DNA of 64,000 nt from Ariolimax columbianus. Its lineage: Eukaryota; Mollusca; Gastropoda; Stylommatophora; Arionidae. Positions 27,653-54,115 of this stretch are shown piece after piece. Position 1 is the first letter of the stretch; every line of letters begins with the position of its first letter. The DNA lies in contig JAVGWX010000012.1 in NCBI GenBank assembly GCA_036924085.1, positions 3,031,099-3,095,098 on the forward strand, written 5' to 3'. Under the pieces are notes generated by a model that did not search any database, was not told the origin of the DNA, and saw only the letters and a program-made list of their open reading frames with translations. A program made the position numbers and the translations under genes.

Positions 27653-30600
27653 CTAGTTATCGAAACTAGTCCAGGTGAGCCTCAGTCCATAAATTACAGT
27701 GTTATGCCACGTGATACAGTTGAGTTGGAATCCAGTCGGGCTGTCATTAAATACTCGGATATTATATCTCAGGTTCTCGGACTGCAGGCTGTCGAGCAAG
27801 TACACAGTGACAACAATCTTTGGGGTCTTTTTGTAAGCTTTTGGAAAGGTGACATAGTTAGCTGATTGGCGCTCGTTCAATCTTACGTTATCATCGCGGC
27901 CTGGAATAAGGATGTAGTTGGAGGATGGTCCACAGTCAACTTTGCCTTGCTGTATCAGTGCTGTGCAAAAAGATAATAAAATAGTGAGAGAGAGAATGAG
28001 AAGAAGAGACAGATGGAGAGAGAAAAATGTAATAATGTTATGAGTAATATCCTTGAGGATGATGATGTTCATGAAGATGGTAGTGAGGTTGTTGGTAATG
28101 ATGCTGATAATAGTGGGAGTGGATGGTTGGTGTACGTGAAGAAGAGGTTTATGTCTGTTGTAAGTGAAGAATTTGCATGTTCTGCATGTAATAGAGTAAA
28201 TCGAAGGTATTTGGTGTAATCATTAGCTACTCCCCCCCCCCCCCCCCCCCCCCAAATGTTGGGGACATGTTGGTGCTGAACGTACAAACTATGATACACT
28301 TACTTCCCCTGTCATAGACCCCCACGTCAGACATCTTGTTTCCAATGTTCAGTCACGTTACGTTCTCTCTTCAACATGTCATCCATATTGCTTGTTTCCA
28401 GGAGGTTTGGGCAGATTATCAGGTGGGCTGGGTCAAGTGTTCCTCCACAGTCACATGTCCCATCATTAGATGGCCTGGATCCACAGTCACATGTCCCATC
28501 ATTAGGTGGCCTGGATCCACAGTCACATGTCTCATGATTAGGTGGACTGGATCCACAGTCACATGTCCCATCATTAGGTGGCCTGGATCCACAGTCACAT
28601 GTCCCATCATTAGGTGGCCTGGATCCACAGTCACATGTCTCATCATTAGGTGGACTGGGTCAAGTGTCCCTCCACAGTCACATGTCCCATCATTAGATGG
28701 CCTGGATCCACAGTCACATGTCCCATCATTATGTGGCCTGGATCCAGTCACATGTCCCATCATTAGGTGGCCTGGATCCACAGTCACATGTCTCTTCGTC
28801 CCTGTATCTGGCTAAGCTCTTCCTGCATTGTGATACACCAGTTGAAAGTCTATATAGTGACTTTCATGTTGTGACAACCAAGAGGTCTCCATGCACAGAT
28901 CCCCAAACCCCCCATTTCGGTCAAGGTGATGTGCGTCAGTTCTTTCCATTGTTCCTAGTGATTGTGTTGATTGTAAGAAACCACGTCTAGATTTGAGTCA
29001 CGTCCACTGCACACAGAATGCACTGTGTCGTCTGCCTGTTTCAATGTTCTGATACGGCATATTCCCGTGTCTCAGGTAAGCTACGCCGACTGTGACGTAT
29101 CTTGTTTGACACTCTGTAGCGATCTGATCAATCTAATGTATTGCTGTATCAATCAGTTTGGCATGTGAAGAGTTTGTACAAACTGGCGCGGAGTATCAAG
29201 CTATGAAGAAACATTGAGCGTATGCTGGTGTTCGGTGCCTATGCTCCCCATGCTGTGTCAGTCAATTTGTGAATGATACGTTTCTTGCGTGTATCTTCTG
29301 TTTTGTTTCCTGGCAGTGTATCGTGTAGTACAGTGTATTATCCAACTTTGTAGCCATATATTTTGGGGTCACGCATTGTTCCAGCTCCTGTCCATGCCAT
29401 CTGTTCTGTAGTTTTCTGTATCCCTCTCTATTTCTGAGGTACAAAGGCACAAATATGGGTTTTGCTGGACTTTGGTTTGAGATAATTTATGTGGTTACTA
29501 AACAGCAAGGGCATACATGACGTGTTTCAGATTGTGTTCCACCTCTTTAAAACCGTTACCTTGTATATCGATTTGTCCTTGGTATACTTGATTGTCTTTC
29601 TCTATGTGGTCCTTTTGGTCATTGGTGTTTATGTTATACAATACAGGAACTAGGTCGCGTTCTTGTATCAGACCGGTCATTTTCCGGAGGGATTTCGCGA
29701 TCTACTTTCACTTCCTCCAAATACGACATGATTCCGCCAGTCCTGCAATAGTCATTCGGTGAGGCTGGTGAGATACCAGTGATTTGGTGAGGTTGGTGAG
29801 ACACCAGTGATTTGGTTAGGTTGGTGAGACACCAGTGATTTGGTGAGGTTGGTGAGACACCAGTGATTTGGTGAGGTTGGTGAGATACCAGTGATTTGGT
29901 GAGGTTGGTGAGATACCAGTGATTTGGTGAGGTTGGTGAGACACCAGTGATTTGGTGAGGTTGGTGAGATACCAGTGATTTGGTGAGGTTTGTGAGACAC
30001 CAGTGATTTGGTGAGGTTGGTGAGATACCAGTGATTTGGTGAGACGTCAGTCATTTGGTGAGGTTGGTGAGACAAAAGTCATTTGGTGAGGTTTGTGAGA
30101 CACCAGTGATTTGGTGAGGTTGGTGAGATACCAGTGATTTGGTGAGGTTGGTGAGACACCAGTGATTTGGTGAGGTTGGTGAGATACCAGTGATTTGGTG
30201 AGGTTTGTGAGACACCAGTGATTTGGTGAGGTTGGTGAGATACCAGTGATTTGGTGAGACGTCAGTCATTTGGTGAGGTTGGTGAGACAAAAGTCATTTG
30301 GTGAGGTTGGTGAGATACCAGTGATTTGGTGAGGTTGGTGAGATACCAGTGATTTGGTGAGGTTGGTGAGACACCAGTGATTTGGTGAGGTTGGTGAGAT
30401 ACCAGTGATTTGGTGAGGTTGGTGAGGCGCCAGTCATTTGGTGAGGCGCCAGTCATTTGGTGAGGCTGGTGAGACAAAAGTTATTTGGTGAGGTTGGTGA
30501 GGCGCCAGTCATTTGGTGAGGCGCCAGTCATTTGGTGAGGCTGGTGAGACAAAAGTCATTTGGTGAGGTTGGCGAGACAAAAGTCATTTGGTGAGGTTGG

Positions 30601-32061
30601 TGAGACAAAAGTCATTTGGTGAGGTTGGTGAGACAAAAGTCATTTGGTGAGGCTGGTGAGACAAAAGTCATTTGGTGAGGTTTGTGAGACAAAAGTCATT
30701 TGGTGAGGTTGGTGAGACAAAAGTCATTTGGTGAGGTTGGTGAGGCGCCAGTCATTTGGTGAGGTTGGTGAGGCGCCATTTATGTGATCCATTTGCGTTC
30801 AGACCAGTAATCGATTAAATTAATATATATGGCTGCGTCATGTTCTATGGTGCAATGACGTCACTACAGAAAACTGTGACGCGACTTTGCCCCTCTGACG
30901 TATGACACTATTACGTCACAACGCAGATCTTCGTTGCTGTGACGTCGTGATTAATCACCGTACATGAGGACGTCATAAGATCACATTGTGCTAAGGTGAC
31001 GTCATGAGGCTAAAGTTCATGACAGTGACATGATAGACCAACCATTCCCAAGATTAAGTCACCAGACCAAACTTTGGTATAATGAATCCATGACGCATAA
31101 TAAATAAGTCCAAGTAACATGATTGACAGAGAAAGATCAGAAAGAAATACCTACACAAATTGTGTTGTAACCAAAATGCAATAATTCAGTACAAAGAATA
31201 ACAAAGGATATAATATTGACACATTGACTACATGAGTCATATCTTGACCTTTAGTACAAGCATTGACACGTTGACTACATGAGTCACATATTGAACGTTA
31301 AAACAATCATTGACCATGATTCCAAACACAGATCATGATTTTTACTAAAATGACCAACAGACCAAACATTGACTGAGAATCAAAACATTGACTGTGAGTC
31401 CAAACATTGACACTCTCGAAAAACGGAATCAACCTTCGACACAATGACGTCATGTGACCAAACAGCAACACCTTATGTGACCAGGGTTTCGCCTGAAGAC
31501 ATTATGTCAACAAACATTTACATGGTATCGTCTTGCGACCAAACTTTCAAGTCGTGACGGCCTCCGATAAAACATTAATCGGATGATGTTATGGGACGAA
31601 CCATTGATACAACGACATCATTAAACTACATTTGCTATCGGTTTAATCCGGCTAAAATGATCATGTGATTGACCGAACTGACCTGAACACACAGACACTA
31701 GTTCCTTCATATCCTTACCTGAACACACAGACACTAGACTCTTCATATCCTTTTCTGTACACACAGACACTAGACTATTCACATCCTTACCTGAACACAC
31801 AGACACTAGTTCCTTCATATCCTTTCCTGAACACACATACACTAGACTCTTCATATCCTTACCTGAACACACATACACTAGACTCTTCATATCCTTACCT
31901 GAACACACAGACACTAGACTCTTCATATCCTTTCCTGTACACACAGACACTAGACTCTTCACATCCTTACCTAAACAGACAGACACTAGACTCTTCATAT
32001 CCTTACCTGAACAGACAGACAGCAGACAGACAACCACCAATGCCTTGATGAGGAAACCCAT
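27653..32061 (-). CDS. Secreted H-type lectin, two coding exons: 32061-32007 and 27960-27653
   Basis: The product is a predicted secreted 120-residue carbohydrate-binding protein. Exon A (32061-32007) starts ACAAAATGG, a good initiation context, and encodes the hydrophobic signal peptide MGFLIKALVVVCLLSVCS. It ends TCAG before GTAAGG. Exon B follows TTTTTGCACAG at 27961, and the phase-1 junction makes G|CA = Ala. The mature part starts LIQQGKVDCG and then carries the H-type lectin hallmarks VTFPKAY, PKIVVTVYLLD, NLRYNIRVFNDSPTGF and NCITWHNTVIYGLRLTW, with a TAG stop at 27653-27655. This matches the Helix pomatia agglutinin family, which binds GalNAc as trimers or hexamers; the two cysteines (DCG and NCITW) match its conserved pair. 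Length is that of a one-domain family member. The 4-kb intron holds a LINE fragment and several arrays, one overlapping the donor. Binding specificity is inference. Confidence 0.88.
28232..28253. repeat. Homopolymer run of 22 C
   Basis: Uninterrupted C run on the plus strand, G run in the lectin transcript, within the lectin intron. Its exact length is liable to assembly error. Confidence 0.9.
28390..29745 (-). mobile_element. Jockey-type LINE 3' remnant in the lectin intron
   Basis: Related to the element at 1-2520. Minus-strand pieces include a degraded NINTNDQ (cf. NIYTNDQ) near 29620, RNREGYRKLQNRWHGQELEQC and KYMATKLDNTLYYTIHCQETKQ (29450-29262). Then come RLSTGVSQCRKSLARYRDEE and a CDCGGTLDPAHLIICPNLL zinc-knuckle tail at about 28390-28440. 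It is truncated 5' at about 29745, where a 28-bp array starts. It lies in the sense direction of the lectin transcript. A 36-bp array has expanded in its zinc-knuckle codons. Confidence 0.78.
28440..28790. repeat. 36-bp minisatellite, about 9 copies, made of LINE zinc-knuckle codons
   Basis: The plus-strand core is ggatccacagtcacatgtcc followed by catcattaggtggcct. On the minus strand one frame encodes CDCGSRPPNDGT repeatedly, and the LINE continues at its end with CDCGGTLDPAHLIICPNLL. The CxC half of the LINE's cysteine knuckle is thus multiplied. A 33-bp variant without the ccaca step occurs near 28741, and two units carry the ggtcaagtgtccctcc variant. Confidence 0.93.
29755..30778. repeat. 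28-bp minisatellite with higher-order pattern
   Basis: Core tttggtgaggttggtgagac, then accagtga, aaaagtca or gcgccagtca. The three variants are grouped: the left part is mostly cacc/tacc alternation, with a block repeated at about 29990-30090 and 30190-30300 that ends gagacgtcagtcatttgg. The right part is aaaagtca. It abuts the 5' truncation point of the LINE remnant. Confidence 0.95.
30779..31675. other. Lectin intron sequence with CRE-like motifs and degenerate TTGAC repeats
   Basis: The segment 31040-31430 contains loosely repeated cattgacac / accaaacattgac motifs, probably an eroded array. CRE-like motifs are listed separately. No exon is evident. Confidence 0.5.
30856..31004. promoter_or_regulatory. 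Cluster of CRE/ATF-like TGACGTCA motifs in the lectin intron
   Basis: Exact TGACGTCA palindromes at 30856-30863 and 30997-31004, plus another at 31445-31452. One-mismatch forms: TTACGTCA 30911-30918, TGACGTCG 30940-30947, GGACGTCA 30968-30975. They sit about 25-55 bp apart. They could be an intronic enhancer bound by CREB/ATF-type factors, or simply the remnant of an eroded tandem repeat. Function is inference. Confidence 0.35.
31676..32010 (-). repeat. 36-bp array repeating the lectin exon-intron boundary and 5' splice site
   Basis: Ten positions spaced exactly 36 bp carry the exon end. Their last exonic bases would be 32007, 31971, 31935, 31899, 31863, 31827, 31791, 31755, 31719 and 31683. 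Six have CAG or TAG followed by GTAAGG (32007, 31971, 31899, 31863, 31791, 31719), and 31683 has GTCAGT. Three are mutated to GA or AA (31935, 31827, 31755). The unit contains the last coding bases of the signal-peptide exon (SVCS) and the first 20 or so intronic bases. The frame is open across the whole array as repeats of GKDMKSLVSVCS. Confidence 0.95.
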
Positions 32062-32118
32062 TTTGTTGGATTGTTTCTGACAATGAAATCTGAAAGAAAC
32101 TGTCAGGACTTTATTTTA
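32062..32118 (-). promoter_or_regulatory. Lectin 5' leader with either a 3' splice site or a TATA/Inr start
   Basis: Upstream of the ATG the minus strand reads TTTCTTTCAG then ATTTCATTGTCAG, with the AG at 32091-32090. This is a good acceptor for a 5'-UTR intron, giving an exon of 32089-32007. Alternatively TAAAATAAAG at about 32118-32109 could serve as a TATA-like element and TCAGATT as an initiator, with transcription starting near 32090. The sequence alone does not decide. Confidence 0.45.
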
Positions 32119-32614
32119 GTGTTCTACACAATTTATGAATAATGGCAAATTGTGTTATCAGATGTTAAATGTTGTATGCAATACGATATTGTTGGGCGGG
32201 ATGCGGAACCAGTATCTCACAGTAACTCAGACAGACTCATGGACTCTGAGTCACTTTTATCAGTTTTGATAAGCCTGTATATCCTGATTGTTCTCGTAAC
32301 GTGTTTGGTTCACTGACTGTTTATCTACCGCCATTGTTCTCGTAACTTGTTTATTTCACTCACTGTTTATCTACCGCCACAAACGCCAATCCCTTGCTAA
32401 CCAACACCCCATTGCAAATGTCTACCATCTATCGAGGGCTAATTCTGTGATATCAGTGACCATGCCGTACAAGGGGTCATTGATTCAGTTCAGTAATTCC
32501 TTCTTGTCTACATCCCCAATGTGGATGTTTCCATAGCCAACATATAAGATATTTCATTAGCTCAACATATTCTGTTATCAGGGACTTGTAATCAAATACA
32601 AAACCTTACGTTCT
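32119..32614. other. Unassigned sequence upstream of the lectin signal-peptide exon
   Basis: Contains a short direct repeat (gttctcgtaacgtgtttggttcactgactg and its near copy, 32289-32380). No gene seen. Confidence 0.4.
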
Positions 32615-53552: not shown

Positions 53553-53628
53553 TCCCGTCTCCACCTTGATTTGTACCCGCGACCTTTGGCACCCTAGGCG
53601 GACACCTTACCTACAGACCACTAAGTCC
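53553..53628 (-). ncRNA. tRNA-like / SINE-head remnant
   Basis: Minus strand: GGGACTTAGTGGTCTGTAGG, TAAGGTGTCCGCCTAGGGTG, CCAAAGGTCGCGGGTACAAA, TC. It has an A-box-like TAGTGGTCTGTAGG, an anticodon-arm-like middle and a degenerate B box (GGTACAAATC against GGTTCGANTC). Spacing fits a tRNA-derived sequence. The B box is mutated, so a functional tRNA gene is unlikely. I cannot name the isotype. Confidence 0.45.
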
Positions 53629-54115
53629 CTCACCCGAGACGGACACCTTACTTCCAGACCACTAAGTCCCTCACCCGAGACGGACACTTTACCTCGAGAC
53701 CACTGAGTCCCCAATCCAAGGTGGACACCGTATCTCGAGACCACTGATTCCCCCACCCGAGGCGGACACCTTACCTCGAGACCACTGAGTCCACCACCCG
53801 AGGCGGACACCTTACCTCGAGACCACTGAGTCCACCACCCGAGACGGACACCTTATCTCGAGACCACTGAGTCCACCACCCGAGACGGACACCTTACCTC
53901 GAGACCACTGAGTCCACTACCCGAGACTGACACCTTACCTCGAGACCACTGAGTCCACCACCCGAGACGGACACCTTACCTCGAGACCATTGAGTCCACC
54001 ACCCGAGACGGACACCTTACCTGGAGACCACTGAGTCCACCACCCGAGACGGACACCTTACCTCGAGACCACTGAGTCCACCACCCGAGACGGACACCTT
54101 ACCTCGAGACCACAT
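53600..54115. repeat. 41-bp minisatellite, about 12.5 copies, derived from the tRNA-like A-box half
   Basis: Plus core cggacaccttacctcgagac followed by cactgagtccaccacccgaga. On the minus strand each unit carries CTCAGTGGTCTCGAGGTAAG, matching the A-box half of the tRNA-like sequence that forms the array's left end. Left units are closest to it (actaagtccctcacccgag), and homogeneity increases to the right. Confidence 0.93.

What the first reader, a model, noticed from the sequence alone, without database searches (positions are those of the whole stretch)
31676..32010. The 5' splice site of a lectin gene is tandemly repeated ten times, in phase
A 36-bp unit spanning the end of the signal-peptide exon (coding SVCS, ending TCAG) and the start of the intron (GTAAGGATATGAAG) occurs ten times. 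Six copies keep GTAAGG, one has GTCAGT and three are mutated to GA or AA. Since 36 is twelve codons, and every copy ends its exon part with the same phase-1 G, splicing from any intact donor to the lectin exon at 27960 keeps the frame. It would insert 0, 1, 3, 4, 6, 8 or 9 copies of a 12-residue lysine/cysteine segment (GKDMKSLVSVCS) between signal peptide and lectin domain. This could be a splice-choice dial for N-terminal length and cysteine content, or redundancy protecting a donor within unstable DNA. I know of no described example, but I cannot search.
Basis: partly seen in the sequence, partly recalled or inferred. Interest (0 to 1): 0.88.

Follow-up and report, generated by a model that had tools for sequence, protein, structure and literature searches.

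The report
Repeated splice donors in lectin genes
A short DNA repeat in a secreted lectin gene carries the intron-start signal ten times; sister genes carry it too but do not keep it readable as protein, so it looks like a drifting repeat that the gene tolerates rather than a built-in length switch.

Summary
In detail: nine 36-bp units give ten exon/intron-type junctions (32007 to 31683, minus strand). Six read GTAAGG, one GTCAGT, three have lost GT; each remaining donor is in frame with the lectin exon at 27960 (PF09458; Helix-agglutinin-like).

New evidence comes from the same genome. The gene belongs to a lectin cluster. Fourteen copies have a recognisable signal-peptide exon, and all 14 show 2-12 junction-like sites. 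Among 12 genes with an intact first donor, only that donor is always in frame: five have no further usable in-frame donor, four share a stop in copy 2, and 10 of 59 spacings are not multiples of three. Later donors are not significantly more conserved than their flanks (p = 0.08), a pseudogene keeps its GTs as well, and the window's units show no coding constraint (2 silent, 9 replacement variants). Genome-wide, triple-CAGGTAAG arrays (7,917 matches) match two control words (7,149; 6,719) but exceed the reversed word (2,625).

Most likely: a minisatellite that took in a donor and drifts in copy number, while donor 1, or a route with the same product, makes the lectin. A ladder of isoforms from the window gene remains possible. 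Closest known: the dual-specific splice-site array of human UBC.

The parts
32062..32180 (-). block upstream of the ATG conserved among paralogs, including TTTCTTTCAGATTTCATTG; promoter and 5' UTR, or the acceptor of an untranslated exon (not resolved)
   Evidence: alignment of 14 paralog 5' regions
32007..32061 (-). signal-peptide exon, coding part (MGFLIKALVVVCLLSVCS + first base of next codon), 55 nt, phase 1
   Evidence: 93-99% identity of a probe over this exon and its flanks in 13 of 14 genes, 89% in pseudogene L054
31683..32006 (-). nine 36-bp units; ten junctions TTCAG|GTAAGG or variants (after 32007, 31971, 31935, 31899, 31863, 31827, 31791, 31755, 31719, 31683)
32001..32006 (-). donor 1 (GTAAGG), the donor whose use gives signal peptide joined directly to the mature lectin
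   Evidence: only donor in frame in 12 of 12 paralogs with an intact first donor
31677..31682 (-). last junction of the array (GTCAGT), weaker than the others
   Evidence: 68 versus 90.5 on a recalled scale
27653..27960 (-). H-type lectin exon with stop codon; acceptor CACAG before 27960
   Evidence: PF09458 E 4e-15; Helix agglutinins in the PDB E 1e-22 to 4e-22, query 21-120 of 120

Best explanation
An H-type lectin gene, one of a cluster in an animal genome (probably a gastropod), has a minisatellite lying across its first coding donor. A segment spanning the end of the signal-peptide exon and the start of the intron was duplicated in tandem before the cluster spread, and the copies have since been lost, gained and mutated separately in each paralog (shown by comparison). 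The product kept by the family is the signal peptide joined straight to the mature lectin, that is, donor 1 to the lectin exon (inferred from frame conservation). The other donors are by-products of copying: in most paralogs their use would give a shifted or stopped message, in the window gene it would give lectins with N-terminal GKDMKSLVSVCS-type insertions (inferred, use not shown). Because each intact junction reads TTCAG|GTAAGG, it could serve as acceptor as well as donor; splicing from donor 1 to a later junction rebuilds a donor at the same exon end and leads to the same final message, which may help explain why the array is tolerated (inferred).
For: All 14 genes with a recognised exon 1 show at least two junction-like sites, so the duplication is old; the nine window units form one group in a tree of 53 units (support 88/72, weakly resolved), so this array grew within the gene. 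Of 12 genes with intact first donor, donor 1 is in frame in 12; further stop-free in-frame donors: window 6, L051 3, L043-L046 and L050 1 each, L048, L055, L056, L057 and L058_9 none; four share a TAG in copy 2. Spacings between junctions: 10 of 59 not multiples of three, in 6 of 12 genes. GT lost at 8 of 59 later junctions and 0 of 12 first ones; changes per column on a tree of the 59 later junctions: donor columns -3..+6 mean 2.1, other columns 3.5, one-sided p = 0.076; the least changed 9 columns are -5..+4. Pseudogene L054 keeps GT at 7 of 8 junctions (one (GT)n false site set aside). Window units: 2 silent and 9 replacement variants, 22% silent expected. Lectin exons: 15 of 15 open (broken L054 set aside), median dN/dS 0.38 over 55 pairs of 11, so the lectin is constrained while the array is not. 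Tandem repeats fill 36.4% of the window and 17.1% of a 50-kb random sample. Genome-wide triple-word arrays: CAGGTAAG 7,917 against CAGTGAAG 7,149 and GAAGTGAC 6,719.
Against: The reversed word GAATGGAC gives only 2,625 triple matches, so with that control the donor word looks threefold enriched; single-word counts to normalise could not be had. The p of 0.076 leans towards some conservation of the junction, and its AG side is the better kept. The window gene itself keeps all seven donors in frame with no stop. By established splicing biology (recalled) equal competing donors often favour the one nearest the acceptor, which would not be donor 1. No transcripts were seen.
Confidence: 0.7

Rival explanations
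1. Splice-choice dial: the cell chooses among the donors to set the length and cysteine content of the N-terminal segment of the lectin, and this is selected.
For: Seven usable donors, all in phase 1 with the lectin exon, no stop in 324 bp; L051 has three further in-frame donors.
Against: Frame and stops are not kept in the family; no coding constraint on the window's units; three of ten donors lost in the window array; 36 bp is divisible by three whatever its use.
Confidence: 0.07
2. Stochastic dual-specific array, as in human UBC: junctions act as donor and acceptor, the window gene makes a ladder of in-frame messages without regulation, and the paralogs make unproductive ones.
For: Intact junctions have the AG|GT core with TTCAG before and GTAAGG after it; 7 of 10 window junctions keep AGGT. 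UBC shows such a ladder (PMC10809524, sections 7-8). The AG side of the junction is the best conserved part of the unit (looked for after the fact).
Against: A single 36-nt unit is shorter than usual animal introns (recalled); the tract before AG is GT-rich rather than pyrimidine-rich; no transcripts seen.
Confidence: 0.15
3. Redundant U1 landing platform: extra donors raise splicing efficiency or protect the long intron, and any donor can stand in for donor 1.
For: Most junctions keep a strong donor (51 of 59 later ones keep GT).
Against: Keeping of GT is no better than in pseudogene L054 (7 of 8) and not significantly above flanks (p = 0.076); 5 of 12 genes have no in-frame backup; L052, which lost donor 1, has only out-of-frame donors.
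Confidence: 0.06
4. The array is mainly exon: the usual donor is the last one and the window lectin carries all nine repeats.
For: Open frame through all nine units; preference for acceptor-near donors (recalled).
Against: Impossible as a family rule (shared stop, shifted frames); the lectin exon alone already matches nearly the whole mature Helix agglutinin from residue 2-3 on; last donor is the weakest.
Confidence: 0.02

Closest known systems
Tandem array of dual-specific splice sites in human polyubiquitin UBC (Duan et al. 2024, PMC10809524; abstract, sections 7 and 8 and search passages read)
   Same: An AG|GT site at each boundary of a tandem repeat whose unit is a multiple of three, so that copies can be kept or spliced out in frame; weak conservation of the sites themselves; rapid repeat turnover.
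   Different: UBC units are 228 nt and encode a functional protein; splicing at UBC sites is shown by RT-PCR. Here the unit is 36 nt, lies across the end of a signal-peptide exon, has no sign of coding constraint, is frameshifted or stopped in most paralogs, and no splicing has been seen.
Tandem alternative donors (GYNGYN and similar; PMC1779574, PMC2279118, PMC2878309, seen in the search listing only)
   Same: Neighbouring donors of similar strength giving in-frame insertions.
   Different: Those sites lie 2-12 nt apart according to the listing of PMC2878309; here they are 36 bp apart and part of a minisatellite.
Intron gain by tandem genomic duplication of an AGGT-bearing segment (review PMC3443670, passages read)
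   Same: Tandem duplication of a segment with AG|GT creates a donor-acceptor pair precisely; each unit here has that form.
   Different: Here the duplicated segment spans an existing intron's donor, and no new intron is shown.
Recursive splice sites, YAG|GT (PMC10156609, passages read)
   Same: The junction motif CAG|GTAAG fits the combined acceptor-donor form.
   Different: No lariat or intermediate evidence; sites 36 nt apart; GT-rich upstream tract.
Helix agglutinin family of H-type lectins (PF09458; PDB 4q56, 2ccv)
   Same: The lectin exon matches nearly the whole mature chain.
   Different: Sequence relatives only; sugar binding and tissue not known.

Membership tests
Tandem dual-specific splice-site array (UBC type) | AG|GT at repeat boundaries | tested here: met
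   7 of 10 junctions in the window keep AGGT; three do not
Tandem dual-specific splice-site array (UBC type) | units keep reading frame whether retained or removed | tested here: inconclusive
   Met in the window array; not met in 6 of 12 family arrays by spacing, and stops in copy 2 of four more
Tandem dual-specific splice-site array (UBC type) | the same site used as donor and as acceptor in RNA | not testable with these tools
   No transcripts held
Closely spaced tandem donors (GYNGYN and similar) | donors 2-12 nt apart | tested here: not met
   36 bp in the window, 34-55 bp in paralogs; the 2-12 nt range comes from a search listing
Recursive splice sites | YAG|GT motif | tested here: met
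   CAG|GT or TAG|GT at 7 of 10 window junctions
Recursive splice sites | lariat or intermediate showing stepwise removal | not testable with these tools
   No RNA data
Intron gain by tandem duplication | tandem duplication carrying AGGT | tested here: met
Intron gain by tandem duplication | the duplicated stretch is spliced out as a new intron | not testable with these tools
   No RNA data
H-type lectin (PF09458) | profile match above the curated cut-off | tested here: met
   56.1 bits against 24; Helix agglutinins in the PDB
H-type lectin (PF09458) | sugar binding by the oligomer | not tested
   no structure prediction or assay made
Ordinary minisatellite of this genome | arrays with this word no commoner than arrays with other words | tested here: inconclusive
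   7,917 against 7,149 and 6,719 for two control words but 2,625 for the reversed word; not normalised by single-word counts

The most novel reading that the evidence does not exclude
The window gene makes a ladder of secreted lectins whose N-terminus carries 0 to 9 copies of a cysteine- and lysine-bearing 12-residue segment, set by which of seven near-equal, dual-specific donors is used, and the number of choices changes between individuals as the minisatellite changes length: a splice-site VNTR. Its sister genes show the same array in non-coding states, so the cluster would be a natural series from neutral repeat to protein-length variation.
Probability: 0.22. Interest if true: 0.65.

Novelty: new variant of a known kind. 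Interest (0 to 1): 0.4.

Why it matters
The cluster offers 12 natural arrays of 2-12 near-identical donors before lectin exons that are still under constraint, a ready test of how the spliceosome picks among equal donors and whether a repeat that swallows a splice site is harmful. If the window gene makes a ladder of proteins, repeat length would become a heritable source of protein N-terminus variation. If not, it shows how well a cell can hold to one donor among many equal ones.

Tried and rejected
Protein relatives: the search for homologous proteins with the joined 120-residue lectin gave 2 candidates and none with E <= 0.001, so no outside species could be compared and the array's age outside this genome is unknown.

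Exact 14-mer GTAAGGATATGAAG in the genome: 31 places; five of the eight loci cut (L001, L002, L004, L005, L008; L003 too) were looked at and showed other repeats or unrelated sequence, no lectin gene.

Exon 1 for the lectin exons L049 and L053 and for the distant C2 copies L060 and L061: no convincing match within the stretches fetched, so these four were left out of the array counts. L052 (first donor lost) and L054 (start lost, lectin exon broken) were left out of the count of 12.

Idea that tandem arrays are seeded at splice donors genome-wide: one search showed three times as many CAGGTAAG arrays as the reversed word, which looked exciting; the further control words removed most of the excess. 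By eye the listed places form about 21 arrays in 66.8 Mb for the donor word and 12 in 44.9 Mb for CAGTGAAG. Flanks of 20 of the donor-word arrays were read; no clear host coding exon was seen by eye, one (L079) ends a 151-residue open frame that reads like a reverse transcriptase (recalled, no family search made). A third control (CAGGATAG) and single-word counts did not complete.

Papers: searches for splice-site repeats gave UBC and closely spaced tandem donors, nothing on a minisatellite donor array; one search found no paper with all five terms. on H-type lectins gave nothing on such splicing in the listings.

Full report
What is there. On the minus strand a 55-nt coding exon part (32061-32007, MGFLIKALVVVCLLSVCS plus one base) ends in TCAG and runs into GTAAGG. 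The 36 bp starting there are repeated nine times, giving ten junctions to 31683, of which seven keep GT. The lectin exon begins at 27960, in the matching phase. Joined at donor 1, exon 1 and the lectin exon give a 120-residue product with an H-type lectin profile match (PF09458, E 4e-15), and residues 21-120 match the mature chains of Helix agglutinins (E 1e-22 to 4e-22). The ordinary product, with no repeat, is therefore a complete secreted lectin. The genome is 2.29 Gb in 401 contigs; that it is a gastropod is inferred from the lectin match and was not tested.

The family. DNA around exon 1 finds 14 genes (15 matches, two in one gene), 13 of them within C12:2.96-3.27 Mb and one at 7.28 Mb. 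The lectin exon finds 19 matches: 15 intact and one broken gene (two matches) on C12, and two distant ones on C2. Of 15 lectin exons read, all 15 are open, and 11 of equal length give a median dN/dS of 0.38 over 55 pairs. All 14 exon 1 regions show at least two junction-like sites by a consensus search with a threshold; the largest, L044, has twelve. The lowest are L050, L052, L057 and L058_9 with two.

Frame. In the 12 genes with GT at the first donor, I listed every donor-like site above a set score, its distance from donor 1 and any stop (frequencies recalled from memory). Donor 1 is in frame in 12 of 12. Stop-free, in-frame further donors: 6 in the window gene, 3 in L051, 1 each in L043, L044, L045, L046 and L050, none in L048, L055, L056, L057 and L058_9. 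L043-L046 share a stop in copy 2, so of L044's eleven strong donors only two would give lectin. Units of 34, 35, 37, 47 and 55 nt make 10 of 59 spacings indivisible by three. In L052 the first donor is lost and the two other sites listed would bring the lectin exon in at the wrong phase. A selected coding dial, or a selected backup donor, would not look like this across a family whose lectin exons are constrained.

Sequence constraint. I placed 59 later junctions on a tree and counted changes per column. The donor columns (-3 to +6) changed 2.1 times on average and the other 17 columns 3.5 times; one-sided p = 0.076, so some conservation cannot be excluded. The GT itself changed 4 and 2 times, no less than neighbours. 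The least changed nine columns are -5 to +4 (14 changes against 19 for the donor columns), and the AG side changed less than the GT side (seen after the fact). GT was lost at 8 of 59 later junctions and none of 12 first ones. In pseudogene L054 7 of 8 junctions keep GT. Within the window array the distinct variants are 2 silent and 9 replacement, with 22% silent expected by chance.

Origin. In a tree of 53 units the nine window units form one group, with weak support (88/72) and many unresolved forks, as expected if each array grew on its own from an older shared pair. The window gene is a mosaic: its 5' and array region is closest to L010/L044 (84%), its lectin exon to L057 (92%). Tandem repeats cover 36.4% of the window, 30.6% of the lectin gene stretches and 17.1% of ten random 5-kb pieces. 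Of 54 minisatellite rows in the window, one other carries a donor score of 80 or more (53590-54113).

Genome census. A triple CAGGTAAG within 12-42 nt gaps occurs 7,917 times on both strands, overlapping matches counted; its reversed word occurs 2,625 times. Control CAGTGAAG, same letters with no GTAAG, occurs 7,149 times and its reverse GAAGTGAC 6,719 times. By eye the listed places form about 21 arrays in the first 66.8 Mb for the donor word and 12 in the first 44.9 Mb for CAGTGAAG. So donor-bearing arrays are at an ordinary level against two of three control words. Single-word counts for normalising did not complete.

Mechanism. The best-supported account is a minisatellite that took in a donor before the cluster spread and has drifted since, while the family keeps the donor 1 product. 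That the cell really uses donor 1 is inferred. Two known tendencies pull apart here: closeness to the cap or to a short first exon favours donor 1, while equal competing donors often favour the one nearest the acceptor (both recalled). A route that satisfies both is splicing from donor 1 to a later TTCAG|GTAAGG junction, which rebuilds a donor at the same exon end and gives the same message. This is inference.

Known parallels. Human UBC contains a tandem array of AG|GT sites used as donors and acceptors, with a ladder of in-frame isoforms by RT-PCR and no regulation found (PMC10809524; abstract, sections 7 and 8). Intron gain by tandem duplication of AGGT segments is reviewed in PMC3443670 (passages). 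Recursive splicing at AG|GT in short introns and at exon ends is in PMC10156609 (passages). Searches showed no minisatellite made of donors at a signal-peptide exon.

Noticed in passing
window 53590-54113: A 41-bp array of 12.8 copies whose minus strand carries a strong donor-like word (GAG|GTAAGG) in each unit; no gene structure was looked for.
   Followed up: no
L052 (C12:3167200-3169500): Lectin paralog whose first donor is lost (TTCACTTAAGG in place of TTCAGGTAAGG) while its lectin exon is open and 84% identical to the window's; the sites left are out of frame.
   Followed up: partly
L054 (C12:3182800-3185700): Pseudogene copy (start codon lost, lectin exon with stops and a frame break) that still keeps the donor array with GT-rich expansions.
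   Followed up: partly
window gene against L044 and L057: Mosaic history: array region nearest to L044, lectin exon nearest to L057, suggesting exchange between cluster members.
   Followed up: partly
array units of 12 genes: The AG (acceptor-like) side of the junction, columns -9 to -1, changed less (1.8 per column) than the GT side (2.7) in later junctions; seen after the fact.
   Followed up: partly
window 32062-32180: Strongly conserved block before the ATG with an unchanged TTCAGATTTCATTG in 14 of 14 genes; could be an initiator or an acceptor of an untranslated exon.
   Followed up: partly
window, whole: 36.4% of the window is tandem repeat against 17.1% in a 50-kb random sample of the genome.
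   Followed up: partly
L079 (C1:6908550-6909300): A donor-word array that starts at the end of a 151-residue open frame reading like a reverse transcriptase fragment (recalled, not searched).
   Followed up: no
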